In this document: piece by piece, positions 40,412-61,400 of the stretch
Position numbering within the stretch: position 1 is the first letter of the stretch
Layout: the number at the start of each line of letters is the position of its first letter
DNA from: Polyangiaceae bacterium
GTDB taxonomy: Bacteria; Myxococcota_A; Polyangia; Polyangiales; Polyangiaceae
Assembly (NCBI GenBank): GCA_016933275.1
Contig: JAFGBI010000225.1
Coordinates: forward strand, 1 to 64,000
Reading direction: 5' to 3'
DNA length: 64,000 bases
The notes under the pieces: generated by a model
The model's input: the letters and a program-made list of their open reading frames with translations, nothing else
What the model was told of the DNA's origin: nothing
Databases searched by the model: none
Program-made: the position numbers and the translations under genes

Positions 40412-40419
40412 CACGCGGG

Positions 40420-43156: not shown

Positions 43157-43186
43157 GCAAAGCGAACCACGTAGGCCACCGCGCAA

Positions 43187-44476
43187 GTGGCCCCTGGCAA
43201 CCACTGGCAGCACTGCTTGCCAGGGCAGCCGCCTGCCCGCTGCCGGACGCCGATCTCCGAAACCGGTTCCGCTCCCGCTCCTGGCCCCCAAATCCCCGGC
43301 TCGCCCAGCGTGCCGCCGATCGAGGGTGGATCTGCACCCAATCCACTTGCACCCTTCCCCCGTCTTCGTGACAATGCCGTCGCCTTGGGCGACGCCTTCA
43401 CGCTCGGTCGTTTCGCCGCCGTTTCCGCGCGACTCGAGGCGGGGCAGCCGCGTGACGCAGTTCTCGCTGCCATGGGATTGAGCGAGGCGGACTGGCTCGC
43501 CGGGCAGCGAGCCTGGCTCGAAAGGCTCGCCACCCAGGTGCGGGCCAATCGATTCCAGCTCCTCACCCAATTCCTCGAGCTCCTGGAGGAAGAACGCTTT
43601 GGGCTCGGGACTCAGGTGATGGGTGGGCTCGACCGTCTGGCGCCCCCACCCATGGTGGTGGCGCAGCCGGATGGGACGGTCACGACGAGCCCCGTGGAAC
43701 CAGGGCCGGTCGGTTGGGCCCCGGCTCCAGGACCCTTGGCGCCCGAGGTCCCGCTGCCCGCGCCACCCACCGCTGCCAATCCCTCCGTCGAGCCGCCGCT
43801 CGCGTTCTTCCTATCTCCGTCCGCTGCAAGGGCCGCGTCACTCACCCCGACCTCGGTGTCCCCGCCAGCTCCCGGGTCGCCCGCTGCCCCGGCGCCCGCC
43901 GCCCCGGCGCCCGCCGCACCAGCGCCCGCAGCCTTCTTCACCTCGGCGTTCAGGGCCGTGCAGCAATCGCCGGAGGGGATTTCGCCCGTGGCCTACTCCC
44001 CTCCGCCAGCTCAGGTGGTCGCTTCCCCTCCTTCTCCCTGGCCCGCGCCGCCGGCGCCACCCGCAGGCTGGTCCGGCGCCATCGCGACCGGCCCGGTGTC
44101 ACCCCACCCCAGCGGGGCTCCGCAGGGAAGCTCGGATTCGGCGGCAGCCGGTCACGTCCCCGGGGCACCTCCCGCCGCCACGCCCCCTGGCTTCTTCGCC
44201 GCGGCCGGTGCGGCCGGCGCGCCTTCGGCAACGGCCGCCCCCGGCTCACCCAGCTCGGCTCCGCCCCCGGTTCGCTTGAGCCTCGAGCAGTACGCACACC
44301 TTACCATCGAGCTCGAGCGTGGAGGGAACACGCAAGCGGTCCTCACTCGTTATCACCTGACGCCGATCGGAAGGTACGCCGAGGATCTCGGGTGGCAGCA
44401 GAGGTTCGCGGCCGAACCAACCCTGCACGCCCAGTTCATGCGCCTCGTCGCGGCCTATCGCACCTCGCCGCGCTAG
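43187..44476 (+). CDS. Two-domain linker protein (unrecognised ~60-aa domain, twice), 429 aa
   Basis: No known family is recognised. A helical domain lies at about residues 70-140 (FAAVSARLEAGQPRDAVLAA, then M-G-L-S-E-A-D-W...W-L-E-R). A second is at the C-terminus, about 365-429 (LSLEQYAHLTIELERGGNTQ, then A-V-L-T-R-Y-H-L...W-Q-Q-R-F). They flank about 220 residues of Pro/Ala-rich, probably disordered linker. The 57474-58451 protein has the same layout, and both lie next to long TPR genes, so partnership with the TPR protein is inferred. No signal peptide is seen. GTG 43187 is the first usable start; a GTG near 43310 is an alternative. The adjacent transposase remnant makes the true 5' end doubtful. 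Confidence 0.7.
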   Translation: MAPGNHWQHCLPGQPPARCRTPISETGSAPAPGPQIPGSPSVPPIEGGSAPNPLAPFPRLRDNAVALGDAFTLGRFAAVSARLEAGQPRDAVLAAMGLSEADWLAGQRAWLERLATQVRANRFQLLTQFLELLEEERFGLGTQVMGGLDRLAPPPMVVAQPDGTVTTSPVEPGPVGWAPAPGPLAPEVPLPAPPTAANPSVEPPLAFFLSPSAARAASLTPTSVSPPAPGSPAAPAPAAPAPAAPAPAAFFTSAFRAVQQSPEGISPVAYSPPPAQVVASPPSPWPAPPAPPAGWSGAIATGPVSPHPSGAPQGSSDSAAAGHVPGAPPAATPPGFFAAAGAAGAPSATAAPGSPSSAPPPVRLSLEQYAHLTIELERGGNTQAVLTRYHLTPIGRYAEDLGWQQRFAAEPTLHAQFMRLVAAYRTSPR

Positions 44477-44749
44477 TCCGCGCTCGCGTCCGGAGCGCTC
44501 GATGGTGACCGACTCCTCCCCGACCCTGCCGAGCGTGGTCGGCTGCCTCGAAGACACCCACCAGGTGAGCCCGGCCGCGTCGCACGCGGATCCGTCGTGG
44601 TCCGGACGTGCCCGGTCGGTCCCCTCGCCAGCGGCCACCAGGCTGGACCGTAGCTGCACGCCGAAGGCCGTTCCTGTAGCGGGTAGGATGCGCTAGACCG
44701 ACGCCTGGCGCATTGCGCTCCCGGGCGGCGAGGGCGGCGGTTCACGACT
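44477..44749. other. Intergenic region before the long TPR gene (273 bp)
   Basis: No gene is seen. TAGGAT at 44685-44690 resembles a -10 element but has no good -35. The GCGCATTGC... motif follows it. The gap suggests the TPR gene has its own promoter although it runs in the same direction as the preceding gene. Confidence 0.5.
44708..44726 (+). promoter_or_regulatory. Shared upstream motif of TPR genes, copy B
   Basis: GCGCATTGCGCTCCCGGGC differs at two of 19 positions from the motif before the 484-aa TPR gene and ends 23 nt before the start codon. A shorter related motif, CTGCGCCCCAGGGC, precedes the 1,252-aa TPR gene. It may be an operator or promoter element. The function is unknown. Confidence 0.45.
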
Positions 44750-47700
44750 ATGGCGCAAAGCCTCGAAGAGATGGTCGATACGCTCCAGGCGGCCCTCGCC
44801 GTCAATCCGCGGGACGCCTGGAAGCGACTCCGCCTCGGCAAGCTCTTCGCCCGGCTCGGCCGTGAGGAGGCGGCGTTCGAGACGCTCCGGAGGGCGTTGC
44901 GCGACGACCCGAAGCTCGCTGAAGCCCACGTCGCGCTGGCGACCCTGCACGATGCCCGCGGCGAGGCGGCGGACCGCGAGCGAGAGCTGACGGATGCGCT
45001 GGCGGTGGATCCCGGCCACGTCGAGGCGACCTACGAGCTAGCTCGGCTCCGCGCTGGTCAAGCACGCCACGAGGAGGCCCTCGCCCTGCTCGCCCGGCCC
45101 GCCTGGCCTCCGCCGTGGCTGCCTCGCTCGCTGCGCGCACGAGCCGCGAGCGAGGGAAAGCTCGGGCGCTGGGACCGGGCGCTCGAGCTGCTGGAGCAGG
45201 CACGCCAGGTCGAGCCCGAGAACGTCGACCTCCGAGAGGAGCTCGGGCTTGCCTATTTCGCCAGTGAGCGGTGGCCACAAGCCGCCGCGGATCTCGGTCC
45301 CGTCGTCGCGACCGATCCGACTCGGATCGCAGCCCAACGCGGCCTCGTGCGCGCCCAGCTCGCGCTCGGCGAGGGGGCGGCGGCCCTGGCGGGCGCCGAG
45401 CGCCTGCTCGCTCGGCTGCCCGAAGATGTCGATGCGCGCGCCGACCGGGCGTCGGCGCTGGTGATGCTGGGCCGCGGGGCGGAAGCGCTCCCGCTCTTCA
45501 AGGAGGAGACCGTCGACCCACGCCTCGTCGGGCCGCTCTGCCGCTCGCTCATCGCGGTCGGGCGCGGCGCGGACGCGCTCCAGCGAGCGCGAGCGCTCGC
45601 CAAGGCGCACCCCGGCGAGGCGTCGGTTCAGGCGCTCCTCGGCGAGGTGCTGGCCACGGTCGGCCACGACGGCGAGGCGGTGGTCCCCCTGCGGCAAGCG
45701 CTCAGGCTCGGCGGCTCGGTCAGCGAGGCCGGGGTCGTCCTGGCCCAGGTGTACGAGCGGCTCGGACAGCCTCGCGACGCCCTCGAGCTCTTGGAGGCCG
45801 CCTGTGCCGAACGCCCGGCGGTGGCGCCACTGCTCGTGTCGCGCGGCCGCGCAGAGCTCGCTGCCGGGTTGCTCGAGAAGGCAGCAGCAACCTTTGCCGA
45901 GGCTGGGCGACTCGACGAAACCTCGGTGCCGGCACGGGTCGGACGCGCGCAGGCCTTGGTCGCTCTCGGCCGGCCGGGGGACGCCATCGCGGCCTACCGT
46001 GAGGTCCTCGATCTCGATGCCGGACGCGGCGAGGACTGGCTCGAACGAGGGCGCCTGGAGCTCGCCGAGCAGCGGTTGGAGGACGCGGCGAGCTCGCTCG
46101 GCAACGCGGACAGGCTCCTGCCCGAGTCGGCGGACGCGGCTGCGCAGCTGGGCGCCGCCCTGTTTGGCCTCCACCGTCTGGGCCCCGCCATCCAGGCGTT
46201 CTCTCGAGCGGTCGCGCTGCGGCCGAACGACGCCGCCTCATGGCTCGCCCTCGGTCGAGCCTACGCCGAGGTCTTCCGCAGCCCGGAGGCGATCGGCGCG
46301 CTCGAGCGGGCCACGCAGCTCGACTCGGAATCGGGTACCGCGTTCCTGCTGCTCGGGCGGGAGCGGGCCGCCATCAAGCGCGACGACCTGGCGGTGCCGG
46401 CGCTCGAGGTCGCGACGCAGCTCCTCCCCGGCGATCCCGCGCCCATCGCGGAGCTCGGGCTCGCGCTGTCCCGCCTCCGCCGCTGGTCCGATGCAGTACC
46501 GGTGCTCCGCAGTGCGGTCCAGCGCGGCGCCAAGACCACCCCCGTCCTCGCCGCCCTCGCCCAGGGCTGCCTCGGACTCGGCAGTCCCTCCGAAGCCGCA
46601 GAGTGGTACACGAAGCTTGCCTCGGCCGAGCCGGAGGTGGCGGAGCACCACGTCGGGCGGGCGGCAGCGTGGCTCGCGCTCGACCGTCGCGCGGAGGCCG
46701 AAGCGGCGCTGGTCCAGGCCGTCCGCCTCGATCCCGGCCACTCCGGGGCCCAGCAGCAGCTCGGCCGCCTCGAATGGGAACGGGGCGAACGCGGCTCGGC
46801 GCTCCTCCGCCTCCAGCGGGCGGCCGAGGGGTTCATCGACGACGACGATGCCTGGTGCGAGTTTGGACAGGCAGCACTGGCGATGGGGGCCGCCCGCGAC
46901 GCCGAACGCGCGTTCCGACGCCGGCTCGAGCTGGTGCCGGGCGACTTCGACGGGCTCTCCGGGCTCGCGCGCGCATTCGAGGCGCTCGAGCGGTGGCCCG
47001 AGGCGATCGAGCATTTTCGGCGCTGCCTGGCCCTTCGCTCCGAAGCGGTCGAGGATCGGCGACGGCTCGGGCTGTTGCTCGCGCGACTGCAGCGGGACGA
47101 GGAGGCCATCCGCGAGCTCGTGCCGGCGCTCGCCGGGGTCGACGACCCGGCGTTGCTCGAGGTGCTGGCAGACTCTCACCTCCGCCTTCACGAGGACGAG
47201 GCAGCGACCGTCGTGCTCGAACGCGCGCTCGGCGACGGGGCGGGGCCACCTGCGCTCCATGCCAAGGCCGGGCTCGCCTACGACCGCCTCGGCCGTGAGA
47301 AGCGTGCCCGCAAGCACCTCGAGCTCGCGATCCAGGACGAGAAGGATCCAGCGGTCATCGAGGCGCTGGGGCATCTGTACGTAGTGGAGGCGCGTCGACG
47401 AGCCGGCACCGAAGACGACGCGGAGGCGGTCGGGGACTATGAGCGTGCCATGCCGCTCCGTCCGCTGGACGTCGAGCTGCGCTGGGAGCTCGGCGGGGCG
47501 CTCCGTCGACTCGACCGCCGCGCGCGCGCGGTGGAGGTGCTGCGCGAGGGAGCGCGCCTGGCGGCGCGGGACGCCCGATTCCCGCTGGCGCTCGGCGAGC
47601 TGTCGTTCGAGGAAGGACAGCACGACGCCGCGCTCGGCTCCTTCGAGCTGGCGCTCTCGCTCGACCCCTCTTGCTTCGAGGCGCAGCGCGGGCGAGCCCG

Positions 47701-50700
47701 AACCCTGGTGGCGCTCGGCAGAGCGAGCGACGCCACGGCCGAGCTGCGCCGCGCCGTGGCGGCACGTCCGGACGCCACGGAGGAATGTGCCGTGTTGGGC
47801 GAGCTCCTGATCGAGCTGGGCAAGCCCGAGGAGGCGCTCCCCGTGCTGACCGAGCTCGTGGCTCGGTGCCCGCTGTCGGCGCGCGCCCTCGGCCTCCTCG
47901 GGACCGCCCAGCAGCAACTCCTGCGGCACCCGGTGGCGGTGACGTCGTTCCGGCGCGCGCTCGAGGTAGATCCGAGCCAGACCGATACGGCGCAGCAGCT
48001 CGCGACCAGCCTGGTCGCGCTCGAGCGCTGGGGAGAGGCGCTCCCCGTCCTGGAGCGGCTCGAGGGGGCCGACCCGAGCTGGCGTGACGAGCTATGCGGA
48101 CTCACCCTGGCGGGTCTCGGGCGCGACGCGGACGCGGTGCCGTATCTCGAGCGGACCGTGCAGCGCCGCACGGACCCGGTCCTGCTGCGAGCGCTCGCCC
48201 GCAGCGCCCTGCGCGCGGGGGAGCCGGGACAGGCCGCGCAAGCGGCACACCGTTTGCTCGAAGAGCTCCCGCAGGACCTCGACGCGCTCCGGACGCTGGC
48301 GGCGGCCGAGGCGGCGCGCCAGGATCGCGACGCCGAGGCACGCGCCTGGCAGCGCCTGCTCGCGATCGCGCCCGGGGATCCCGAGGCCCGACACGGCCTG
48401 GCCGCCGTGATGCGGCAGGAGGCGGAGCGAGCAGCGGCGGCCAACCCCGGGCTCGCGGTGGACCGTTTTCGCGAGATCGCGGCGCTGCGGGCCGAGGATC
48501 CGGTCGCCCACCGGGAGCTCGGCGAAGCTCTGGATCGCATGGGCGACGCGCAAGGGGCGCTGGCCGCCGTGCGCCACGGGCTCTCCGCCGCGCACCCTGA
48601 CGCCCCACTCGCGACGCTGGCGGGCACCTTGTTGCTCCGCGCGAACGAGCTCGAGGAGGCTCGCGCCATGTTCGATCTGGCGCTGCGCTGCAACCCTCGA
48701 CACGTGCCCGCACTGGCAGCGATGGCCGACGTCTTGGTCCGCCTTGACGACGCGAGCGGAGCCGTGGAGGCGCTGGCCGATCTGGTGGACGTGGACGAGA
48801 ACGCCATCGACGCCTGGCGGCGCCTTGCCGAGCTCCAGAATCAGCTCGGACGACACGGAGCCTCCGCGGATGCGTACGAGCGGGTGGCGGCGCTCGGCTC
48901 GTTGGGCCTGGACGAGCAGGTGACCTGGGGGCTGGCCCGCCGCGAAGCCGGGCAGCTCGAGGGAGCTTGTGAGCTGCTCTCGGCCGTCGTCAACGAATTG
49001 CCGGACCAGATCGAGCTTGCCCTGGCCCTCGCCGACGTGCAGCGGAGGCTCGGGCGGCGAGCGGAGGAGCTCGCTACCCTCGAGGGCGCCGCGAACCACG
49101 CCCCCGACGATCTCGTGGTCGCCGCGGAGCTCGCGCGCGCACAGGCGGCGTGTGAAAAATGGGAGGCCGCCTGCACCACCTACGAACGAGCACGCGGGTC
49201 GAACCCGACCGAACCCTGGCTCCGTGAGTGGCTCGCCGCAGCCGAGCAGGCCAACCACGTTCCCTCGCAGATCCGGGCGCTGACCGAGCTCACTGCGCTC
49301 CAGCCGGACGACGCGGAGGCCTGGTACCAGCTCGGGCGGGCGGAATGGAGCTCGGGCCGCGCGGAGGCGGCGCTGCCCGCGTTCGAGCGGGCGCGCTCGC
49401 TCGCCCCACGCAACCGCTCGATCGCGCGGGACCTCGCGACCATGGCGATCGAGCTCGCGAGCAGCGCCGACGCGCCGAACGTCTCGTGGCTCGTCTTGGC
49501 CACCGAGCACGGCGAGGACGAGCCGGATCTGCTGGTCATCGCAGCGAGGCTCTGGCGACGGGCCGGGGAGCTCACCGCCAGCCGCGACGCGGCCCGTACC
49601 GCCGTGGAGGGGGCTCCGAACGACGTGGAGGCCCTGGTGCTCCTGGCCGAGCTCGAAGAGCAGCTCGGGGATCTCGAACCGGCCGCCCGCACCTTCGAAC
49701 AGGCATTGCGGGTCAAGGTCGATGCGATCGACGCGCTCCGCGGCCTCGCCCGAGTTGAGCTCGCGCTGGGTGACGCGCGCGCCACGAAGACCGCCGAGCG
49801 CCTGATCGCCCTGACCCCCGACGACGAGCTCGGGCGGTCGCTCGCGGCGGAGGCCGCCGAGGCCGCCGGGGCGCCCGAGCGGGCGGTGGAGCACTGGCAG
49901 TGGCTGTTGACCAACGCTCCGTCGCGAGACGACGCCCGCCCGCGGCTCGCGCGCCTCCTGGGCGAACTCGGCAGACACCGGGATCGGATCGAGCTCCTGA
50001 CCGGAGTGAGGGACGACGACGCCCTCGCGCTCATGCTAGCCATGTCCTGGCTCGCGGTGGGGGAGCCGGGGCGAGCAGCAGGCGTGGCTCCGACGACGGG
50101 CAGCGGGGACCTCGCGGGCGCAGCGTGGGCGGTCAAGGCCCGCGCCCTCGTCGCCGTCGGCACCGAATCCGACGCGGCAGCCGCGTTCGAGCAGTCCTTC
50201 GTCAACGGCAATCGGAGCGTGGTAGAAGAGTGGCACGAGCTCGTCGTCCGCCTGGGCCGCCACCTGCCTTGGCGCGATGCCGCCGACCTGCTCGCGCGAA
50301 CCGTCGAGCACGCGCCAGCGGCCAGCTTGCTGACCCTCCTCGCGGAACGGGAGCTCGAGGGTGGGCGTGCCCAGCCCGGTCTCGCCGCGGCGCAGCGCGC
50401 CCTGACGCTCGGCGCGGGCGCCGAGGCGTGGCGCCTCGTCGGTACGGCCTACGAGAGGGTGGGTGACGAGCGCGCCGCAGCCGAGGCCTTCGCCAAGGCG
50501 GCCGGCGCGGATCCGACGGACCGCACGGCGGTGCTCGGGGTCGCCCGCATGGAACGGGCCGGCGGTCGACACGCGGAGGCGATCGCGGCGCTCAAGCGAC
50601 GGGTCGTCGAGGACCCCCATGACACCGAGGCCCTGGCGTTGCTCGCCGACTCCTACGACGCGACCGGCGAGATCGCGGACGCGGTCCGCGCGTGGCAGCA

Positions 50701-53700
50701 GCTGCTCGGTGCCGGCAAGCTCGCCCCCGAGGCCTGCGCCCGGCTCGGGCATCGCTGTCTCGAGCTCGGGCGCGCCGAAGCCGCCGCCGAAGCGTTCGAG
50801 GAGGCCCTCGATGCTGCTCCCGACGAGGCGGAGCTCCTGACCGCGCTCGGTGACGCACGGCTGCGCATGAACGACCCCGAGGCGGCGACACCACCCCTCG
50901 AGAAGGCGATCCGACTGGGGGCGGCGACGCCGCCAACCCGGGCCCTCCTGGCCCGCGCCCATCTCGGGTGCAGAAGGTACGTGGACGCCATCGCGGCGCT
51001 CGCGAAGACCCCGATCGAGGACGACGCGACGCTTCGGGTCCTGCTCGAGGCGGCGACCCAGGCCCAGGACGACGCCGAATGCGTGCGGGCCCTCGAGGGG
51101 CTGATCGCGGTGGCCCCGAGCCCATCGTGGTTCCTGGCGCTCGCGGACGTGTTCGAACGAGGGGGACGGCGGCGCGACGCCATCAACCGCTTGCGCGCGG
51201 CAGAGCGCACGCCGGACCTCGAGCAACGACTGGTGTCGCTCTGCCTCGACGAGGGCGACGCGGCCCTCTCGCGCGGCGAACCGGAGCTCACGCGGTTGCT
51301 GCTCGAGGAGGTGGCGTCGTTGTGGCTCGAACCCGTCGCGGCGCTCCGCGCCGCCCGCCTCGCCCGCACCATCGGGCACCCGTCGCTCGTGTTCCGGGTC
51401 GGGGAGCGCGCGCTGGTGGAGGGAGCGCCGCCGGAGGTGGTCCACGACGCGCGGTTGCTGCTCGGGGCCGTCGAGCTGGCCTCGGGTGGCAAAGACCGGG
51501 CACTCTCGCACTACCGCGCCGCGATCGAGGCGCGCTTCGACTCCGTGGAAGCGCTCCTCGGAGCCGCCGCCTGCGCCTTCGAGCTGGGTGATTTGACTGG
51601 TGGGGCTCCGTCGCTGGTTCGCGCGCTGCGCCTCGAACCCACCCGCGTGCAGGGACGCACCCTGGCGTGGGAATGGGCTCGCCGCGTACCGACGGCCGAG
51701 CTCGTGCCCGCGCTGGCGCTCCTGGTCGAAGCCAACCCCGACGACACCATGGCGCACCGCGAACTCGGCCACCTGCTAGCGGCCGGTGGACAGGCGGGCG
51801 AAGCCGTGGAGCACCTCCGCGAGGCGATGCGGCTCGGTACCGATCCTGACACGCTGGCGCTCCTAGCGAGGCTCTCGATGGAGGTCGGGGACGACGAGAC
51901 GGCGCGAGCCGCCGCCGACGAAGCGTTGACCGTCGCGCCCAGCCACCGGGCAGCGCGGACATGGCGCGCCGTGGCCTCGTTGCCCATCGCCGCGGCGACG
52001 GAGCTTCCGACGATGCTCGCGGACCTGCGACCCGACCTCATGACCTCGGCCGAGCGCGCGCGGGTCGCCCTCGCCCTCGCGCGGCGCGCGAGCGAGCTCG
52101 AGGCCGCGGGGGATCCGGGGAGCGCCGCCCTCGTCTACGGCAAGATCGAGGTCATCGATCCACAGCAGGGTCGGCAACAAGCGCTGCAAGGGGCGCGCGC
52201 CGCGCTGGCCGCCGGGGATCTCGGGCTGGCGGCGCAGCGCGCCGAGTCGGCGACGCGCGCGCGTGCCGACGACGTCGAGGCCCATGTCCTGCTCGGGGAG
52301 ATCCGCGAGCGTGCCGGAGCGGACGCCGAGGCGCTCGCTGCGTACGGAGCGGCGCTCGGGATCGACCGGGGACACCCCGCGGCCCTGCGCGGGTACGGCC
52401 TCACCGCCGCGCGGCTCGGTCGCCACGAGGACGCCCTGCGGACCCTGCAGGCCGGGATCCCGCGGCAGCCCGGCCCCGATCCCGAGATGGTGGCCACCCT
52501 CGGGGGCAGCGCGGAGGCGCTCGGACGACGGGCAGAGGCGGTGGACAGCCTGCGGCAGCTCGCTGCCCTCCGACCGCTGACCATCGGGGAAGAACGGCGG
52601 CTCGGCTCGCTCCTGCTCGCGTCGAGCGATCCAGCTGAGGCGGTCCGCCATTTGGAGGCTGCCGCGACCGCCAAGCCCGAGCCGGCCATCCTCGACGAGC
52701 TCGCCAAGGCCTATGAGCGGTCGGGGAACCTGGCAGGTGCGATCTCGGAGCTCCAGCGCCTCGCGGAGCTCGCGCCCGACCACCCAGGCTTGCAGGCGCG
52801 CCTCGGGCAGCTGCTGGTATCGTCCGGAGACCATCGCGGCGCACTGCGGTCGCTCGAGATGGCGCTCAACGCCGAGGGAGAGCGGGTCGAGCTGCTCGAG
52901 GCCGCGTACGAGGCGAGCCGCCTAGCTCAGGATCGTTCCGGGGTTCTGCGCTACGGCGCGCGCCTGGCGAAGGTGGCGCCCCGGCCCGAGGTGCTGCTAT
53001 CGCTCGGAAACGCTCGGCTCGCGGCAGGTGACGTCGAGGGGGCGCTGGTCGTCCTGTCCCAGGCGGTGGAGCAGGGCACGGTCGAAGCTCGCGACGTGCT
53101 CGCGAACGCGCTGGGCGAGCGCGCCGCGCAATACGCCAGCACCGGGGATGGAACCGCGGCGGCCGTGTGCCTCCGCCAGGCGCTCGAGCTCAATCCCGAG
53201 CATGTGGAGCACCGCTATCGCCTGGGTCTGCTCGAGCTCGAGGCTGGCGATCTGCTGCGAGCCCGGGAGGATCTGGCCCGGGCCGCGCGCGCCCCAGACG
53301 CTTCCGCCGCCTGCCTCGGGGCCACCCTCCGAGCAGCAGAGCGGATGAAAGACGCCAAGCTTGCCATCCTGGCGGGGGAGCGCCTGATCGCCCAGACCCC
53401 GACCGCCCCCACCGCCCGCAGCCTGGCCGGCGCCTGTGAGGCCGAAGGCAAGACCGCCGAGGCCATTCGCTACTACGAGTGCGCCGTCGCCTGCGAACCG
53501 AGGGACGTCATCGCGCTGTTGGCGATGGCGCGCCTCCACGCCCGGGCGGGCGACCACGCGGCAACGCTCACCGTGATCGGGAAGGCGGTCCAGATCGAGC
53601 CTGGCAATTACATCGCCAACGCGCTGCGAGCGGACGCGCTCACGCGACTCGGCCGACACCAGGACGCCATCCCGGTGCTGGAGTGGATGCTGAGCCAGCA

Positions 53701-54886
53701 TGCGAGCGTCGAGACGCTGCGGCAACTCGCGTACAGCCACGCTTCGCTCGGGCAGGTCAAGGAAGCGGTGGGGGTGCTCGAGCGCGCGGCCCAGCACGCG
53801 CCCCAGGACACGCAGCTCCTCGTACAGCTTGGCGCGGCCCGGCTGTCCGCCGGCGATCCCGCGGGCGCGATGGTTGCGTATGAACGCGTGCTGACGCTCG
53901 AGCCCTCGGCGGAGAACGCAGCGGCGTTCGTGGGCGTGGCGCTGCAGGTCGGCGCCGACTCGCTCCGCGCGGGGCAGGCGGCAGGCGCGGTGCGGTGGCT
54001 CCTTCGCGCGAGGGCCATCGCGCCCGACCGCCTGGACGTACAGCTTGCCGTCGTCCGAGTCGCGCTCGCCACTCAGAATCCGACGCTCGCCATCGACGCG
54101 GGTCGGCGGGTCGCCAGCATGAACGATCGAGCTCTCGAGACTCCGCTGATCCTCGAGCTGGGGCGTGCCGCGGAAACGACCGGCGACCTCGGGGAAGCGC
54201 GGAGGTATTACCTCTTGGCCCTGGGCAGGGAACCGCGCAACCCGGCCGCGCTGTTCGCGGTCGGTTGCCTGGACCTCCGGGAGGGCGCCCCCGCCCGGGC
54301 GGCCGAAGCCCTGACTCGCTGTCGAAACGAGAACCCGGACCACCCGCGCGTCGCCACCATGCTGGCGTTGGCGTGGCTGGCGAACGGCGCTGGAGCCCAG
54401 GCCGCGGACCTGTTATCCGCAGAGATACAGCGGTCGCCGCGAGATGGGGAGGCCCACGAAACGTTGGGGCTAGCCCTCGCTCGGATGCGGCACTACAGGG
54501 AAGCGGCTGGCGCCTGCGCCACCGCCGCGGCGCTCGGCCGCAGCAATGCCACGCTCTACGCAACCTGGGGTGAATGCGCTCTGAACTTCGGCGATATGAA
54601 GCTCGCGGGGAATGCCCTGAAGCGAGCCTTGGAGCTCGACCCCAACGACCCAGGGGCGATCGTGCGGAACGCAAGCGTCGTCTTTGCGGAGGGCCGGCGC
54701 GAGGAGGCCATCGCCGAGGTCCGCCGAGCGATTGGCATCGCGCCCCGCGAACCGCGATCGCGGCTCGAACTCGCCAGCATGTACATCAAGATGAACCGGG
54801 CCGATCTAGCCCGACCGGAATACGAGGCGCTTCGTCAACTCGATCCGGAGATGGCCGCGCGGCTCTCTCGCTTCTTTCCCGGATGA
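44750..54886 (+). CDS. Giant TPR-solenoid protein, 3,378 aa
   Basis: Almost the entire protein is tetratricopeptide repeats. The unit of about 34 residues, A-x-x-x-L-G-x-x-x-x-x-L-G-R-x-x-E-A-x-x-x-x-x-x-A-x-x-L-x-P, recurs from residue ~10 to the C-terminus (LYATWGECALNFGDMKLAGN...). The length allows roughly 90-100 units. No signal peptide, membrane helix, kinase or other enzyme domain is seen. The N-terminus (MAQSLEEMVDTLQAALAVNP) resembles that of the 1,252-aa TPR protein, which suggests common origin. TPRs form right-handed superhelices that bind proteins, so this is probably a very long cytoplasmic scaffold. The two-domain linker gene lies upstream and mltD 59 bp downstream on the same strand. 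Its cargo is unknown. Confidence 0.95.
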   Translation: MAQSLEEMVDTLQAALAVNPRDAWKRLRLGKLFARLGREEAAFETLRRALRDDPKLAEAHVALATLHDARGEAADRERELTDALAVDPGHVEATYELARLRAGQARHEEALALLARPAWPPPWLPRSLRARAASEGKLGRWDRALELLEQARQVEPENVDLREELGLAYFASERWPQAAADLGPVVATDPTRIAAQRGLVRAQLALGEGAAALAGAERLLARLPEDVDARADRASALVMLGRGAEALPLFKEETVDPRLVGPLCRSLIAVGRGADALQRARALAKAHPGEASVQALLGEVLATVGHDGEAVVPLRQALRLGGSVSEAGVVLAQVYERLGQPRDALELLEAACAERPAVAPLLVSRGRAELAAGLLEKAAATFAEAGRLDETSVPARVGRAQALVALGRPGDAIAAYREVLDLDAGRGEDWLERGRLELAEQRLEDAASSLGNADRLLPESADAAAQLGAALFGLHRLGPAIQAFSRAVALRPNDAASWLALGRAYAEVFRSPEAIGALERATQLDSESGTAFLLLGRERAAIKRDDLAVPALEVATQLLPGDPAPIAELGLALSRLRRWSDAVPVLRSAVQRGAKTTPVLAALAQGCLGLGSPSEAAEWYTKLASAEPEVAEHHVGRAAAWLALDRRAEAEAALVQAVRLDPGHSGAQQQLGRLEWERGERGSALLRLQRAAEGFIDDDDAWCEFGQAALAMGAARDAERAFRRRLELVPGDFDGLSGLARAFEALERWPEAIEHFRRCLALRSEAVEDRRRLGLLLARLQRDEEAIRELVPALAGVDDPALLEVLADSHLRLHEDEAATVVLERALGDGAGPPALHAKAGLAYDRLGREKRARKHLELAIQDEKDPAVIEALGHLYVVEARRRAGTEDDAEAVGDYERAMPLRPLDVELRWELGGALRRLDRRARAVEVLREGARLAARDARFPLALGELSFEEGQHDAALGSFELALSLDPSCFEAQRGRARTLVALGRASDATAELRRAVAARPDATEECAVLGELLIELGKPEEALPVLTELVARCPLSARALGLLGTAQQQLLRHPVAVTSFRRALEVDPSQTDTAQQLATSLVALERWGEALPVLERLEGADPSWRDELCGLTLAGLGRDADAVPYLERTVQRRTDPVLLRALARSALRAGEPGQAAQAAHRLLEELPQDLDALRTLAAAEAARQDRDAEARAWQRLLAIAPGDPEARHGLAAVMRQEAERAAAANPGLAVDRFREIAALRAEDPVAHRELGEALDRMGDAQGALAAVRHGLSAAHPDAPLATLAGTLLLRANELEEARAMFDLALRCNPRHVPALAAMADVLVRLDDASGAVEALADLVDVDENAIDAWRRLAELQNQLGRHGASADAYERVAALGSLGLDEQVTWGLARREAGQLEGACELLSAVVNELPDQIELALALADVQRRLGRRAEELATLEGAANHAPDDLVVAAELARAQAACEKWEAACTTYERARGSNPTEPWLREWLAAAEQANHVPSQIRALTELTALQPDDAEAWYQLGRAEWSSGRAEAALPAFERARSLAPRNRSIARDLATMAIELASSADAPNVSWLVLATEHGEDEPDLLVIAARLWRRAGELTASRDAARTAVEGAPNDVEALVLLAELEEQLGDLEPAARTFEQALRVKVDAIDALRGLARVELALGDARATKTAERLIALTPDDELGRSLAAEAAEAAGAPERAVEHWQWLLTNAPSRDDARPRLARLLGELGRHRDRIELLTGVRDDDALALMLAMSWLAVGEPGRAAGVAPTTGSGDLAGAAWAVKARALVAVGTESDAAAAFEQSFVNGNRSVVEEWHELVVRLGRHLPWRDAADLLARTVEHAPAASLLTLLAERELEGGRAQPGLAAAQRALTLGAGAEAWRLVGTAYERVGDERAAAEAFAKAAGADPTDRTAVLGVARMERAGGRHAEAIAALKRRVVEDPHDTEALALLADSYDATGEIADAVRAWQQLLGAGKLAPEACARLGHRCLELGRAEAAAEAFEEALDAAPDEAELLTALGDARLRMNDPEAATPPLEKAIRLGAATPPTRALLARAHLGCRRYVDAIAALAKTPIEDDATLRVLLEAATQAQDDAECVRALEGLIAVAPSPSWFLALADVFERGGRRRDAINRLRAAERTPDLEQRLVSLCLDEGDAALSRGEPELTRLLLEEVASLWLEPVAALRAARLARTIGHPSLVFRVGERALVEGAPPEVVHDARLLLGAVELASGGKDRALSHYRAAIEARFDSVEALLGAAACAFELGDLTGGAPSLVRALRLEPTRVQGRTLAWEWARRVPTAELVPALALLVEANPDDTMAHRELGHLLAAGGQAGEAVEHLREAMRLGTDPDTLALLARLSMEVGDDETARAAADEALTVAPSHRAARTWRAVASLPIAAATELPTMLADLRPDLMTSAERARVALALARRASELEAAGDPGSAALVYGKIEVIDPQQGRQQALQGARAALAAGDLGLAAQRAESATRARADDVEAHVLLGEIRERAGADAEALAAYGAALGIDRGHPAALRGYGLTAARLGRHEDALRTLQAGIPRQPGPDPEMVATLGGSAEALGRRAEAVDSLRQLAALRPLTIGEERRLGSLLLASSDPAEAVRHLEAAATAKPEPAILDELAKAYERSGNLAGAISELQRLAELAPDHPGLQARLGQLLVSSGDHRGALRSLEMALNAEGERVELLEAAYEASRLAQDRSGVLRYGARLAKVAPRPEVLLSLGNARLAAGDVEGALVVLSQAVEQGTVEARDVLANALGERAAQYASTGDGTAAAVCLRQALELNPEHVEHRYRLGLLELEAGDLLRAREDLARAARAPDASAACLGATLRAAERMKDAKLAILAGERLIAQTPTAPTARSLAGACEAEGKTAEAIRYYECAVACEPRDVIALLAMARLHARAGDHAATLTVIGKAVQIEPGNYIANALRADALTRLGRHQDAIPVLEWMLSQHASVETLRQLAYSHASLGQVKEAVGVLERAAQHAPQDTQLLVQLGAARLSAGDPAGAMVAYERVLTLEPSAENAAAFVGVALQVGADSLRAGQAAGAVRWLLRARAIAPDRLDVQLAVVRVALATQNPTLAIDAGRRVASMNDRALETPLILELGRAAETTGDLGEARRYYLLALGREPRNPAALFAVGCLDLREGAPARAAEALTRCRNENPDHPRVATMLALAWLANGAGAQAADLLSAEIQRSPRDGEAHETLGLALARMRHYREAAGACATAAALGRSNATLYATWGECALNFGDMKLAGNALKRALELDPNDPGAIVRNASVVFAEGRREEAIAEVRRAIGIAPREPRSRLELASMYIKMNRADLARPEYEALRQLDPEMAARLSRFFPG

Positions 54887-54945
54887 GTCCCGCTGGATTC
54901 TGGCGGAGAAACCAACTCGCGTCCGTTCCTTGTCCAGGTGTGTAG

Positions 54946-56829
54946 ATGTATGCAAAAGTGGCCCCTCAGATGGTACCGCGAGTCCTGAGCCGGTTGCTCG
55001 TGTATCCGATCGTCCTCTTCTGCGGGATGGCGGTGGGGTCGACCTTCGGCCCGACACCCAGTGCCACGCCGCCGACGGGGCGGTTCCCGCAGCGCGATGG
55101 TCAGCCACCCGCGCACCCGGACGGGCGTTTGGGCGCCGAATCGGTGGAGCTTCGCGCCTTGCGGGCGGCGGAACGCCACCTGTTCCCCGAGCTCCACGGC
55201 TTCGACCCCGATGCGTCCCTCGCGGATCGATGGGACCACGGCGAAGCGATCGGCGACGTCGACGACGGGAACCGCCGTCGATCGTCCGACTCCTCCCGGC
55301 GAACGGGGAATTTCCTCGCTGATCTCGCCAAGCCCGACCTGCCCGTCCAGCGCCACCCGCGGGTCGCCAAGTACATCAAGTACTTCTCCGAGAACGCGGA
55401 GGGGCGAAAGCTTCTCACGTCGTGGCTGAAACGGAGTGGGTACTACCAGGAGATCGTCGAGGATGCCCTCCGAGCGGAGGAGCTGCCGATCGACCTCCGG
55501 GCGGTGGTCTTCATCGAGAGCGGCTGCTGGCCCACCGCGCGCTCGACCGCCGGCGCCCTCGGTCTCTGGCAGTTCATGCCCCGCACCGCGCGCGCCTATG
55601 GGCTGGTGGTCGATGGCAACGTGGACGAGCGCCGCAGCATCTGGCGCTCGACCGAAGCGGCAACCCTGCACCTGCGCGACCTCCACGACCGGTTCCGGTC
55701 GTGGGATCTGGCGCTCGCGGCCTATAACTACGGTCACGAGAACGTCGAGCGTCGAATGGGGGAGCTTGCCGCGAACAACTACTGGGAGCTCGCTGACATC
55801 GACGGCGGCCTGCCGCGGGAGACGGCCCTCTACGTCCCCAAGGTCCTCGCGGTGGCGGTGATCCTGCGGAACCTCGAGCACTTCGGCTTCGACGACGTCG
55901 AGCTCGCGGAGCCGCTGCGCGCCACGGCCATCCAGGTCCCGCCCGGGATCAGACTGTCCCTGATCGCGCGGGCAGCAGGGACCAGCACGCGAACGGTCCG
56001 GGAGATGAACCCGGAGTTCCGGGAGGACATGATTCCCGACCGCGGTGGTCCATCGGTGGTGCGAATCCCGACGGAGGGGCTGGCGCGCGCGCGGACGATG
56101 CTGCCGAGGCTGGTGCAGAACGATAGCGATTCCGCCCTGGATCTCTCGGCCTCCTACGATTTCGACTGGGGCCGCGATGAGTTCGGCACCGACGGAGGGA
56201 TGACGGCGCTCGAGCGGCTGAGCCGGACCAGGTCGCCCAAGGCGAGGAAGCGGCAGGCCCCGCTGGAGCTCCTCAACTCGGCCCCGCTGTCACCCGCCTC
56301 GCGAGCCGCGGCGGAGGGTCTCGAGCCCGATGACGGGGACGCCGAGACGAGTGACGCGCCCTCTGAGACGGATCTCGTCGAGGCGGCCAGATCTGGTCGC
56401 GTCACGCGACCGCGTCGCTCCCGCCAACAAGGGGCCGAAGTGCCGCGTGCGCTACCGCGTTCTCGGGTCGTGCACCGGGTGGAGGCCGGGGAGACCGTTT
56501 GGGATCTGGCGCAGATGTACGGCGTCAGCTCGGGGCACATCGTCCGCGAGAACAACCTGTCCAATCCGGACCTGATCACGCCAGGGCGTACCCTGGTGAT
56601 GCACGTGCCCACGGTGAACACCAAGAAGCCGGCCGAGGACAGCGCTCCGGCGGCGGCCTCCGCAGCCGAACCCGTTCCGGCTCCCAGCACCGGCGCCCCG
56701 CCACCAACGCCCGCGAGCGAAACGCCCAAGGCGGCCGCGAGCGAGGCGCCGACGAGCGAACCGTCAATGACGCCAGCGCCCACCCGACCATCCTCGAAGT
56801 CCACTCGCCGCCGCCAACGGCGGCGGTGA
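54946..56829 (+). CDS. mltD: MltD-type lytic transglycosylase with LysM domain, 627 aa
   Basis: It cleaves peptidoglycan glycan strands to 1,6-anhydromuramyl products in the periplasm. Hydrophobic residues 13-31 (VLSRLLVYPIVLFCGMAVG) are a signal peptide or anchor; the ATG at 54970 is an alternative start. The SLT/GH23 domain spans about 165-300. It includes the catalytic Glu191 in VVFIESG, AGALGLWQFMPRTA, and LALAAYNYG with the later substrate-groove residues. A LysM-like segment follows (about 325-375, ending with VVRIP), then a long low-complexity region, then a clear LysM at about 507-553 (VEAGETVWDLAQMYGVSSGH). The tail is Pro/Ala-rich and ends in arginines. The gene starts 59 bp after the giant TPR gene, so co-transcription is likely. 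Confidence 0.92.
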   Translation: MYAKVAPQMVPRVLSRLLVYPIVLFCGMAVGSTFGPTPSATPPTGRFPQRDGQPPAHPDGRLGAESVELRALRAAERHLFPELHGFDPDASLADRWDHGEAIGDVDDGNRRRSSDSSRRTGNFLADLAKPDLPVQRHPRVAKYIKYFSENAEGRKLLTSWLKRSGYYQEIVEDALRAEELPIDLRAVVFIESGCWPTARSTAGALGLWQFMPRTARAYGLVVDGNVDERRSIWRSTEAATLHLRDLHDRFRSWDLALAAYNYGHENVERRMGELAANNYWELADIDGGLPRETALYVPKVLAVAVILRNLEHFGFDDVELAEPLRATAIQVPPGIRLSLIARAAGTSTRTVREMNPEFREDMIPDRGGPSVVRIPTEGLARARTMLPRLVQNDSDSALDLSASYDFDWGRDEFGTDGGMTALERLSRTRSPKARKRQAPLELLNSAPLSPASRAAAEGLEPDDGDAETSDAPSETDLVEAARSGRVTRPRRSRQQGAEVPRALPRSRVVHRVEAGETVWDLAQMYGVSSGHIVRENNLSNPDLITPGRTLVMHVPTVNTKKPAEDSAPAAASAAEPVPAPSTGAPPPTPASETPKAAASEAPTSEPSMTPAPTRPSSKSTRRRQRRR

Positions 56830-56920
56830 TCGCACCGCCGCAACCCCACCGCCGGTAGGTCGTGTGCCTTCACGCCCCAGCCGCCCCGACTGAAAGCCGC
56901 TTCGCTGGCTGGAGCAGCGA

Positions 56921-56954
56921 TCAGGTTGATTGCTGCGTCGAATCAACAACCTGA
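56921..56954. terminator. Imperfect hairpin downstream of mltD
   Basis: CAGGTTGATT and AATCAACAACCTG (one three-base bulge) surround a 9-nt loop about 90 bp after the mltD stop. It could mark transcript end or belong to the neighbouring repeat. There is no U-tract. Confidence 0.3.
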
Positions 56955-56963
56955 CCCGGCACA

Positions 56964-57109
56964 GCCGGAGCCAAACAGGCCGGGCCATCAGCGGTCAGGC
57001 GTCAGGTAGAACGTGGAGACCCTGATCGCTGACGCCTGATTGCTGGTGGCCACGAGAACATTGAAGAATTTTCTACCAGATCCGGTCAAGATCACACCGC
57101 CAAGGGACT
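56964..57109. repeat. Dispersed intergenic repeat, copy B
   Basis: The 109-bp core at 57001-57109 differs from copy A (34409-34517) at four positions, in the same orientation and about 22.6 kb away. The left flank is shorter than in copy A because the heptamer expansion is missing. It lies between mltD and a hairpin cluster. Confidence 0.9.
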
Positions 57110-57110
57110 G

Positions 57111-57350
57111 GAGCACCGAACCGGCAGCAGACCTCTCCAGAGGCAGCGCTGGAAACGCGTCCTCGCCTCGCACCGACGCGTTTCCAACGCTGCCGTTGCT
57201 GTCAGCAACCTGATCGGTGCTCGGGGCGCGACGAGCACCCCACGCCGCCACCCACGTTGCCAAGACAACGCGGGACCCGTGGCGACGCGAGTCCCGGGAG
57301 CGGAGGTTTGACCCCCACGCTCTCCCCAACGCGCCCAGGCCCGCGTTGGG
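57111..57350. ncRNA. Candidate structured RNA or recombination element (hairpin cluster)
   Basis: The 9-bp arms GAGCACCGA (57111-57119) and TCGGTGCTC (57214-57222) enclose three hairpins: CCTC/GAGG (57132-57143); a 19-bp stem with one mismatch, GGCAGCGCTGGAAACGCGT (57142-57160) with 57176-57194; and TTGCT/AGCAA (57196-57208). The result is cloverleaf-like. Further stems follow: CGTTG/CAACG (57255-57270), CGGGAC/GTCCCG (57271-57296) and CCAACGCG/CGCGTTGG (57326-57349). It is not a tRNA: no T-psi-C loop or anticodon context fits. It could be a small RNA, an attachment site or a folded repeat element. Confidence 0.45.
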
Positions 57351-57473
57351 TCCCGGAGCGCCGGACCCCGCCAGCGGAGCAGATCTCGGTCGGTCGTTTC
57401 TGGCTCAGGACTCCGTGAACGGATCGGGGAGGACAGTCACGCCGGCCTCGCCCCACGCGCGGGGCAACGCCGC
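57351..57473. other. Short non-coding stretch downstream of the two-domain linker gene
   Basis: This is the 3' flank of the minus-strand gene that ends at 57474. No gene or clear site is visible apart from the preceding hairpins, which could also act in its termination. Confidence 0.4.
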
Positions 57474-58451
57474 TCAGGCACGCGGCCGATAGTACTCCAC
57501 CAGCGCCAGGTATCGGTGGCGTAGGTGCGGCGCGACCTCGAAACGCTGCTGCCACCGCGCGTCCTCTTGCTGGTAGGAGGGGAGATCGAAGCCGTGGCGG
57601 GCCAGGATCTCGAGGACCTGGACGGGCTTGGCGGTGAGCTCGACGTCGATCGAGGCGAGCTGTTCGAGCAGCAGCGGGCGCCACCCCAGAGCGGCGCTGG
57701 GGGCGGCGGCCGCTTGAGGCAGCGTCTGCTGGTCGTAGTACGCCCCGGACGCCGACAGATCGGGCGCTTGAGCCGCCACCGGAACCAGGCCCGCGTTCTG
57801 CTGGGCAGCAAAGACCCCGGACGCCGACAGATCGGGCGCCTGAGCCGCCGCCGAGGCCATGCCCGCGATCTGCTGGCCACCGTAGCCCCCGAGCGCCGAC
57901 TGGTTCGGTGGCTGAACGGCGGAAGCCACCCCCGTTGGCTGTTGGGTGACGTAGCCCCCGGACGCCGCATGGCCGGGTGGCGCCGCAGCGAGCCCGGCGC
58001 TGGGCTGTGGATAGGGCGAGGCCTCTGGCGGCGGGGTCTGCGCCCGAAGCACGGGGGTCACTGGCGCCGGATCGTTGACGGTGGGCGGCGGGGGCTCGTG
58101 AACGTCTGCGTGCAGGACCGGGGTGACCGGAGCCGCAGATGCCTGCTCATCCGCAGCATCCCAGGGAGTGCTTGGGTCGGGCGCCGCCGGAGACACGCCG
58201 CCGCTCGGCAGATCCGCCGTCGGCGGCGCGGTGCCCGCCAGGGCCAGCAACCGTTCATGGGCGGCCTGCAACGCCGCCTCGACCTGCCGGCGGACGTTCG
58301 GATCCCGCTCCGCCCAGGTCTGCCACCGCTCGTGCTCCGTTTCCCACTCTTCGAGGGTCACTCCGGCGCCGGCGATGGCGGTTTCGACGGGCACTCCGCA
58401 TTGAATTCGGAGCCACAGGTCTGCGTACTGGTCGATGGAAGGGGTGGTCAT
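57474..58451 (-). CDS. Two-domain linker protein (unrecognised ~60-aa domain, twice), 325 aa
   Basis: The N-terminal domain (about 8-68, IDQYADLWLRIQCGVPVETA...W-E-T-E-H-E-R-W-Q-T-W) and C-terminal domain (about 265-325, RPLLLEQLASIDVELTAKPV...R-W-Q-Q-R-F-E-V...Y-L-A-L-V-E-Y-Y-R) resemble each other and both domains of the 43187-44476 protein. Between them is an Ala/Pro/Gln linker with a 24-residue repeat (GxYxxQQxAG...AQAPDLSAS). No signal peptide, membrane segment or catalytic motif is seen. The gene starts 9 nt after the stop of the 1,252-aa TPR gene, so the two are one operon and probably partners. I do not recognise the domain family. Confidence 0.8.
   Translation of the reverse strand: MTTPSIDQYADLWLRIQCGVPVETAIAGAGVTLEEWETEHERWQTWAERDPNVRRQVEAALQAAHERLLALAGTAPPTADLPSGGVSPAAPDPSTPWDAADEQASAAPVTPVLHADVHEPPPPTVNDPAPVTPVLRAQTPPPEASPYPQPSAGLAAAPPGHAASGGYVTQQPTGVASAVQPPNQSALGGYGGQQIAGMASAAAQAPDLSASGVFAAQQNAGLVPVAAQAPDLSASGAYYDQQTLPQAAAAPSAALGWRPLLLEQLASIDVELTAKPVQVLEILARHGFDLPSYQQEDARWQQRFEVAPHLRHRYLALVEYYRPRA
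57716..57985 (-). repeat. 72-bp in-frame repeats in the linker
   Basis: About four degenerate 72-bp units encode the 24-residue linker repeat. The sequence CCCCGGACGCCGACAGATCG recurs exactly 72 bp apart at 57743 and 57815. Such repeats vary in copy number easily, which fits a spacer. Confidence 0.8.
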
Positions 58452-58460
58452 CTCCGGCTC

Positions 58461-61400
58461 TCACACGAGCTTCTGGTCGAGTTGGGCAGCACGAGCGGGA
58501 TCGAAGGCGGCGAGCGTGTCTCGTTGCTGACGAGCGGCAGCTGGATAGCCCGCCGCATGCAGGCAGAGGGCGAGGTGGAACGTCCACTCCGGCTCCCGCG
58601 GCGCCAGGCGCTGCGCGTGCTGTAGCGGCGTGAGCGCGTCCAGGGGCTTGCCTGCCGCAAAGAGCGCCACTCCCAGGCGCCCGTGCGCCGAGGCATCGTT
58701 CGGCCGCAGCTGGCTCACCTTTCGGTAGGCCTCGACGGCCTCGTCGTGCCTGAGCATCTGCTCGAGCAGGCGCGCCATGTTGGCGTAGATGTCCGGATCC
58801 TCCAACCCGAGCCGCGTGGCATGGTGGTAAGCTGCCGCCGCCTCTTCGTAGCGACCCGCCTTGGCGTACCCGAAACCCAGCGCGCCGCGCAGCGCGGGGT
58901 TCTGGAGGTCGCAGGAAACCGCTTCTTCGAGAGCCGAAACCCCCTCCGACAATTGCCCGGCTCTCAGGAGCGTGATCCCCATCGAGCCGTACGCCGGCCC
59001 GTATCGGGGCTCGAGCGCGAGCGCCCGGTGGTAAGCGTCGACCGCTCGGTCCACGCGAGCGAGGGACCCCAACACGCCGCCGAGCTCGCACCAGAGCGCA
59101 GGGCTTTCGCCCACGGAGAGCGCGGCCTCATACGCCGAGACGGCAGCGTTTCCGTCGCCCTGTTGAACGAGCACGCGCGCGAGCGCCACCTGGGCCTCGG
59201 CGCTGTCGGGTTTGGCCGCGCACGCCTCCCGCAAGGCCGTAGCCGCGTCGTGAAGGCGGTTGAGCGCCACGAACGCGCGCCCGAGCGCCACCCGCGCGTC
59301 GTAGTCGCCGGGATGGGCGCGGAGCGCGAGCTGGAGCGGACCCAGTCCTTCCCCGTACAGGCCCGCGCCGACGCACGCCAGCCCGAGCGCGCGCTGGACT
59401 CCGGGGTGCCCGGGCGCGGCGCTCGCCGCCCTGCGGGCGGCGCTCACGGCCTCGCTCCAGCGTTCCTGGTGACCGAGGGCCCTCGTCACGGCGATGGCGA
59501 GCTCCACGTCGCTAGGTTCCGCAGCGAGCGCCTCCGCGTAGCGCTCGGTCGCGCGGTCGTGTTGGCCGAGCTCCTCGTGGATCGCGCCGAGCTCGCGCGC
59601 GACGCCGGGGAGGCCGCGGTCCATGTTCAAGGCAGCGCCGAGCTCGTCCGCTGCCGGTCCGAGGTGCCCAGCCCGTCGTCGAGCTCGCCCGAGCTCGACG
59701 CACACCTGCGGATCCGCCGGGGTGGCGACGCGCAGCGCTTCGAGTACGCGGATCTGCTCGTCGATCCGTCCGAGACGTTCATAGACCTCGCGCAGCCCTC
59801 GCAGCAGGGCTGGGTCCACCGGCGACGCGTGCGTCGCCGCCTCCAGCACCGGCACCGCAGCCTCGAGCTGGCCCGCCCCCAGCCGAGCCATCCCGAGGGG
59901 CCCCAAGAGATCCGAGCGTGACGGCTCGGCCGCAACGGCGCGCCCGAGGGCGTCGGCGGCCTCCGCGTGCTGGCCGAGCGCGAGCAAGGCCTTCCCCAGA
60001 AGCCCGAGCCCCTCCCCGTGCCCATCCGCGAGACGGAGGAGCTGACGCGCAGCCAGGCTTGCCTCGCGTGGAGCACCGGCGCGAAAGTAGCAGCGGGCAG
60101 CCCAGAGCCAGGCATCGACACGCTCGGGCTGGCGAGTCGTGGCTTCGCGGAAGGCGGCCGCCGCTTCGGGCACGCGACCGCACGCCTCGAGCGCGACCCC
60201 TAGCTGGAAGTGGAGTTCGCCGTCATCCGGACGCCCCGCCTTGGCGGCCTCGAGCTGGGGCAATGCGTCGGCGAATCGTCCGAGGGAGTTCAAGAGCGCG
60301 CCCAGCTCGGCGCGGAGCTCGGCGTCGACGGGGTGCGCCTCCATCGCGCGAGTCAGCGTCTGCGCCGCCTCTCCGGCCCGGCCAGCGCCCGACAAGGCAC
60401 GACCGAGCGCGATCTGGACCTCGGTCGCGTCCGGGCTCACCCATTGTGCCTGCTCCAGCACACCCACCGCTTCGTCCCATCGACGGAGATCGGTGAGCAG
60501 CTTCCCGAGCGCGAGCAGGAGGCGCGTGTCCTGGGGCTTGCGGCGCAGCGCGTCGCGCAGCATCTCGAGCGCCCCGTCCGCGCGGTTCGTCTGCGCCAGG
60601 GCCAACCCCAGGGCGGCGAGCACCTCGGCGTCGTCGGGCGTTCGGGTGATGACCTGCTCGAGCTCGCGGATGGCGCCCTCGACCTGGCCGCGGCGCAGGC
60701 GCGCCAGACCCACCCAGCGGGAAAGGTCGGGGTTGGGTTGAGGAGAGGTCACGCGCTCCGCCCGGGTGATGAGCTCGGTGTCACGGTTGAGTGCATACAG
60801 GCTCGCGGCCAGCGCGACGTGGAGGTCGATCCGGGCCGCATCGCGCAGGACGGCATCGTCGAGCACCTCCACGGCCTCGACGTGTCGCCCGAAGCTCTGC
60901 AGGGCGCGACCAAGCACGAGACTGGCGTCGGTGAAACCGGGACGAAGGACGAGCGCGCGCCGCAAGGGGTCGAGCGCCGAATTCGCGTCCCCGCTCTCCG
61001 CGAGCAGCCGACCGATCGCGAATTGCGCCTCGACGTGGGTCGGGCGCACGACGGCGGTGCGGCGGTACGCCTCCAGGGCGGCCGCGCCGTCCCCGCGTCG
61101 TTCTCGGTTGCGCGCGAGCTCGAAGAGGATGTCGGCGTCGTCGGGCGCCAGGGCCAGCGCTCGTTCGAGCGCGGCGATGGCGTCATCGGGACGGTTCAAG
61201 TGCTCGTAGGTGACGGCCAGGTGGGCGAAGGCCACCCCGAGGGTGGCCTCGATGGCCACGGCACGTTCGAGGGGACGCAGCGCGTCCAGGTATTGAGCGA
61301 GCTCGTTGTGGGCGGTGCCGAGGCCGGCGAGCGACCGCGCATCCTCCGAATTGATCGCGAGGGCGCGTTCGAAACTCGGCACCGCCGCCGCCGCGCGGCC

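What the first reader, a model, noticed from the sequence alone, without database searches (positions are those of the whole stretch)
43187..58451. Undescribed ~60-aa domain occurring twice in each of two linker proteins beside long TPR genes
Four segments share L-x-x-Y-A-x-L-x-x-E-L-x-x-G...V-L...G-L-T...W-Q-x-R-F-x-x-x-P-x-L...L-x-x-x-Y-R. Each protein has one at each end of a disordered linker, a bivalent tether layout. Both genes are next to a TPR scaffold gene, one separated from it by only 9 nt.
Basis: partly seen in the sequence, partly recalled or inferred. Interest (0 to 1): 0.78.

Follow-up and report, generated by a model that had tools for sequence, protein, structure and literature searches.

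The report
Tether proteins of a bacterial toxin-injector
Two proteins made of the same small, so far unnamed helical module at each end of a floppy linker sit beside this myxobacterium's only set of type VI secretion (toxin-injector) genes, and in its relatives the module recurs next to, or fused to, the parts that load the injector's poisoned tip, so it is probably an overlooked loading or tethering part of that weapon.

Summary
Proteins A (43187-44476 +) and B (57474-58451 -) each carry two copies of a ~62-aa domain around a disordered Pro/Ala-rich linker. AlphaFold gives four helices at pLDDT 96; no Pfam or NCBIfam model reaches A or B.

Just past the window, the same contig holds the genome's only TssM and a nearly complete type VI secretion (T6SS) core. 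The lytic transglycosylase between A and B belongs to a family that sits inside T6SS clusters of most relatives examined.

In Polyangiales the domain occurs in up to 33 copies per genome. It lies next to vgrG and DUF4150 (PAAR-like) genes (10 of 13 genes within 12 kb in one closed genome; 0.75 expected). It is fused to DUF2169, the known PAAR chaperone (TvpA), in at least 17 proteins. N-end and C-end copies form separate subfamilies. Linkers of relatives, but not of A or B, carry a repeated T-x11-LPF motif (115 LPF versus 5.5 expected).

Best reading: a Myxococcota accessory family of Tvp-like VgrG-PAAR spike assembly. The association is shown; the mechanism is inferred. Large TPR neighbours are not a general feature of the domain.

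The parts
43187..44476 (+). protein A: N-domain, Pro/Ala-rich linker, C-domain (start codon uncertain)
43397..43600 (+). domain copy A_N (N-end subfamily, 5-aa insert between helices 3 and 4)
   Evidence: tree groups it with N copies of L075, L067 and L064 (99/87)
44276..44464 (+). domain copy A_C (C-end subfamily)
   Evidence: (AlphaFold pLDDT 96.3)
44750..54886 (+). TPR1, 3378-aa TPR protein, 273 nt downstream of A
54946..56829 (+). SLT-LysM lytic transglycosylase (MltD-like); relatives lie inside T6SS core clusters
57474..58451 (-). protein B: N-domain, disordered linker, C-domain
57483..57674 (-). domain copy B_C (C-end subfamily)
57675..58253 (-). disordered linker of B, pLDDT about 50
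58254..58442 (-). domain copy B_N (divergent)
58461..62219 (-). TPR2, 1252-aa TPR protein, stop 9 nt before start of B
63630..64000 (-). C-terminal part of a TssB/TssC-like fusion protein; gene continues past the window to about C353:65537. First gene of the T6SS core cluster (C353:63630 to about 88400)

Best explanation
[quoted passage not shown] The ~62-aa domain is a four-helix protein-interaction module. In this protein class two different versions sit at the ends of a disordered tether, so the protein can hold two partners. Shown: the fold prediction, the two subfamilies, and linkage or fusion to VgrG, DUF4150 and DUF2169 in relatives. Inferred: during spike assembly one end binds the VgrG-PAAR/DUF2169 (Tvp-like) pre-complex and the other holds it to a second component such as the baseplate or, in this genome, the TPR proteins, releasing it before firing. 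In relatives the repeated T-x11-LPF linker motifs would be extra docking sites.
For: T6SS core (TssH,K,L,M,A,C,F,E, Hcp, TagH, TagF, TssBC-like) starts at window 63630 on the same contig, and it is the only TssM of the genome. The window's SLT-LysM protein has relatives in or beside 15 of about 22 T6SS clusters, mostly next to TssH/TagH. Domain genes lie near VgrG or DUF4150: 10/13 within 12 kb in G032 (0.75 expected), 6/12 in G019 (0.49 expected). DUF2169 fused in 17 of 24 scanned large members. vgrG is the next gene downstream, same strand, within 300 bp for 12 domain genes, plus 2 overlapping ORF calls. TvpD-like genes overlap domain genes and a HEAT-repeat protein is adjacent or fused. DUF2169 is a PAAR chaperone in Tvp complexes (PMC13373197). 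At least 4 copies: 14/31 TssM+ genomes versus 1/28 TssM- (p=2e-4); copies track VgrG number, rho 0.50. N and C copies form separate groups. Linker motif 115 versus 5.5 expected.
Against: Several T6SS-positive relatives lack the domain (G020, G041, G045, G051, G055), so it is not essential. Fifteen TssM-negative genomes carry one to four copies, so part of the family works elsewhere. No VgrG or DUF4150 gene was found on the window's contig, and A and B lack the LPF motif. No interaction was modelled or measured. The domain is small and helical, and its fold gives no functional clue.
Confidence: 0.6

Rival explanations
1. T6SS-linked tether to the TPR scaffolds: A and B cross-link TPR1 and TPR2, which form a scaffold at the apparatus, rather than handling the VgrG-PAAR spike.
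For: A and B are each next to a TPR gene, B 9 nt from TPR2. A 1733-aa TPR relative lies beside the T6SS core of G010.
Against: Most domain genes in relatives have no large TPR neighbour (10 of 88 loci, mostly weak), while spike genes recur.
Confidence: 0.2
2. The domain is a general helical interaction or regulatory module of Myxococcota; its T6SS neighbours reflect expansion in mobile effector islands rather than a role in secretion.
For: Single copies occur in genomes without TssM and in other classes of the phylum; three members match DUF6620.
Against: Repeated fusion to DUF2169 and genes overlapping TvpD-like genes are hard to explain by hitch-hiking; A and B sit at the core cluster, not an effector island.
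Confidence: 0.12
3. DNA-binding helix-turn-helix proteins that regulate the T6SS genes.
For: The weak fold matches are mostly HTH regulators (MntR, SarZ, Tc3; Z up to 4.0).
Against: Z that low is common for small helical models; domains are mostly acidic (median pI 5.6, net charge -2); fusion to DUF2169 points to protein binding.
Confidence: 0.04

Closest known systems
Tvp accessory proteins of T6SS (TvpA = DUF2169, TvpC = DUF6484/DUF3540, TvpD, TvpB), PMC13373197
   Same: Same genomic company (VgrG, DUF4150, DUF2169, a TvpD-like gene); the domain is fused to DUF2169 in at least 17 proteins; likely the same stage, spike assembly.
   Different: A and B have no DUF2169, pentapeptide-repeat, OB or beta-prism part. 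The tether layout and LPF-motif linkers are not described for Tvp systems in the parts of that paper read here.
Pfam DUF6620 (PF20325)
   Same: Its C-terminal part (positions 271-417 of 450) matches members of this domain family (two copies in L027).
   Different: Matches 3 of 59 relatives (G008, G025, G029); none in the window's genome; A and B do not match.
T6SS adaptors/chaperones in general (Tap/DUF4123, Eag/DUF1795)
   Same: Small cytosolic accessory proteins encoded next to vgrG and effectors (general knowledge; Eag and DUF2169 roles as cited in PMC13373197).
   Different: No Pfam match of A or B to any of them; different architecture.

Membership tests
Tvp accessory complex (TvpA/DUF2169) | DUF2169 domain in the protein | tested here: not met
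   A and B have no Pfam match at E<=1. Other members of the domain family do carry it.
Tvp accessory complex (TvpA/DUF2169) | Encoded with VgrG and a DUF4150/PAAR protein | tested here: inconclusive
   Met for many relatives. For A and B the T6SS core is adjacent, but no VgrG or DUF4150 gene was found on that contig.
Tvp accessory complex (TvpA/DUF2169) | Required for VgrG-PAAR spike assembly | not testable with these tools
   Needs genetics or biochemistry.
T6SS-associated gene set | Located at the T6SS core cluster | tested here: met
   C353: B and TPR2 lie 1.4-6 kb from the TssBC-like gene and TssM is at 73955-77509; the window's SLT-LysM family is conserved in T6SS clusters.
DUF6620 (PF20325) | Profile match above gathering score | tested here: not met
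   A and B: no match at E<=1; own genome: none.
TPR-partner family (reader) | Domain co-occurs with long TPR genes | tested here: not met
   10 of 88 loci with any TPR-like ORF, three over 1000 aa within 1 kb.
HTH DNA-binding proteins | HTH fold | tested here: inconclusive
   Foldseek E>=1; VIA Z<=4.0 to MntR/SarZ.

The most novel reading that the evidence does not exclude
A lineage-expanded class of T6SS spike-loading tethers. Each protein has two different end modules joined by a disordered linker that in relatives carries up to eleven copies of a T-x11-LPF docking motif, and works with DUF2169-, HEAT- and TPR-proteins. This would let one myxobacterium arm its T6SS with tens of VgrG/PAAR combinations.
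Probability: 0.35. Interest if true: 0.75.

Novelty: new variant of a known kind. Interest (0 to 1): 0.55.

Why it matters
T6SS spike loading is an active question, and adaptor families are being defined mainly in Pseudomonadota. An expanded, unnamed adaptor-like module in Myxococcota, fused to the PAAR chaperone DUF2169 and carrying a repeated linker motif, gives a direct handle on how predatory bacteria with 20-30 VgrGs choose and mount tips. It also gives a profile for annotating many proteins without a Pfam match.

Tried and rejected
Relatives of full-length B: none in genome contigs, since only the end domains are conserved. A multi-sequence profile was too diverse for that tool; one member gave only itself, a Byssovorax MAG. 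PDB sequences: nothing significant. PDB and viral fold searches: no match at E<=0.001. First Pfam batch hit shadow ORFs on the wrong strand and was discarded. A transposase remnant upstream of A was suspected by eye; Pfam found nothing. Co-occurrence with long TPR genes tested and not general.

Full report
OBSERVATION. The two ORFs, their four repeated segments and their TPR neighbours are as described. Pairwise shuffling gives z = 12.6 for A_C/B_C, 4.0-5.7 for four other pairs and no signal for A_N/B_C. A profile of the four copies finds further copies in the own genome (C114, E 7.6e-6 and 2.2e-5) and 32 of 59 relatives at E<=0.1. A 28-row profile finds 37 of 59 at E<=1e-3, with up to 33 copies in one genome, and 63 of 379 genomes of the phylum at E<=1e-6. 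One relative carrying it is a Byssovorax MAG, so the lineage is Polyangiaceae, Myxococcota.

FOLD. AlphaFold with the 28-row alignment gives four helices, pLDDT 96.3, pTM 0.84. Full-length B shows two such ends (most blocks above 90) around residues 73-260 at pLDDT about 50. No PDB or viral structure matches at E<=0.001; the weak hits are mostly HTH regulators, which is not informative. No PDB sequence matches. A and B match no Pfam family at E<=1, and in NCBIfam only a chance hit far below its cut-off.

ARCHITECTURES. In relatives three layouts recur: (i) N-domain, linker, C-domain, like A and B; (ii) a tandem pair alone, about 150 aa; (iii) a tandem pair at the C end of larger proteins. Of 24 large members, 17 carry DUF2169. 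A tree of 120 copies separates the positional classes (13 changes of label versus 58.6 in shuffles). A_C and B_C fall in the C-end group (97/89) and A_N with N-ends of proteins at a T6SS core (L075), upstream of three vgrG genes (L067) and in L064 (99/87). B_N is long-branched and unplaced. So the two ends are different modules, not interchangeable copies.

CONTEXT IN THE WINDOW'S GENOME. The contig continues past the window with a TssBC-like fusion (63630 to about 65537), TagH, TssH, TssK, TssL, TssM, TagF, TssA and TssC, then TssF, TssE and Hcp. TssB and TssG were not separately identified. It holds the genome's only TssM. The SLT-LysM protein between TPR1 and B has relatives in or beside the T6SS cluster in 15 of about 22 cases, mostly next to TssH/TagH, so the A-TPR1-SLT-B-TPR2 block looks like part of the T6SS neighbourhood. 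The three VgrGs on C114 lie in a locus with another domain protein, a DUF2169 protein and an Rhs protein.

CONTEXT IN RELATIVES. In closed genome G032, 10 of 13 domain genes lie within 12 kb of a VgrG or DUF4150 gene (mean 0.75 in 20,000 random draws, none as high). In G019 it is 6 of 12 (mean 0.49). VgrG lists were truncated by the tool, so the observed counts are lower bounds and the random mean is slightly low as well. For 12 domain genes vgrG is the next gene downstream on the same strand within 300 bp, with 2 further overlapping ORF calls. A TvpD-like gene overlaps or abuts several domain genes. A roughly 700-aa protein with weak HEAT matches is adjacent to the tandem form in many loci and part of the same ORF in L105 and L134. 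At genome level, 4 or more copies occur in 14 of 31 TssM-positive and 1 of 28 TssM-negative genomes (p = 2e-4), while having at least one copy does not separate them (p = 0.19). So a T6SS-linked expansion sits on top of a wider, partly T6SS-independent family. DUF6620 overlaps that wider family in three genomes, one of them TssM-positive.

LINKER MOTIF. Linkers of relatives hold 115 LPF tripeptides versus 5.5 expected, with a threonine preferred 12-14 residues upstream (80 of 125 position counts). The motif with upstream T is about 50-fold denser than in other genes of the same loci. A and B have none. The binding partner is unknown.

TPR. Large TPR neighbours are not a general companion: 10 of 88 loci, mostly weak. 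A 1733-aa TPR protein sits by the T6SS core of G010 (451 bits to TPR2); the gene before it resembles DUF1795 by eye only. So TPR1 and TPR2 may be T6SS-linked in some lineages.

MECHANISM. Tvp work shows that DUF2169 proteins chaperone DUF4150/PAAR tips and help mount them on VgrG (PMC13373197). Fusion and linkage place this domain at the same stage. The two-ended layout suggests it holds the tip complex to something else; the identity of the second partner and release before firing are inference.

Noticed in passing
window 3-33812 (-): One open frame of 11,270 aa (GC3 0.90) that runs off the low end of the window, with RCC1-like repeats near the end read; the + strand ORFs there are shadows.
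   Followed up: no
window 38291-40414 (-): Protein with seven IPT/TIG repeats matching NCBIfam 'choice-of-anchor Z' repeats.
   Followed up: no
window 40586-42785 (+): nrfH followed by a multihaem cytochrome reading like NrfA: ammonia-forming nitrite reductase (NrfA by eye).
   Followed up: partly
window 42955-43371 (+): Open frame reading by eye like a transposase fragment just upstream of A; no Pfam match.
   Followed up: partly
G000:C353:63630-65537 (-): A second, diverged TssB-TssC-like fusion beside a normal TssC; relatives are found in many Polyangiales T6SS clusters.
   Followed up: partly
L067, L072, L076, L123: Three consecutive, different vgrG genes in one operon-like array, the last about 940 aa, suggesting a heterotrimeric VgrG spike.
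   Followed up: no
L123:579-2771 and relatives in other loci: Roughly 700-aa protein with weak HEAT matches, adjacent or fused to the tandem domain in T6SS loci.
   Followed up: partly
L154:2724-3183 (+), G010:C29: By eye a DUF1795 (Eag-like) chaperone gene directly before a 1733-aa TPR gene beside the T6SS core.
   Followed up: no
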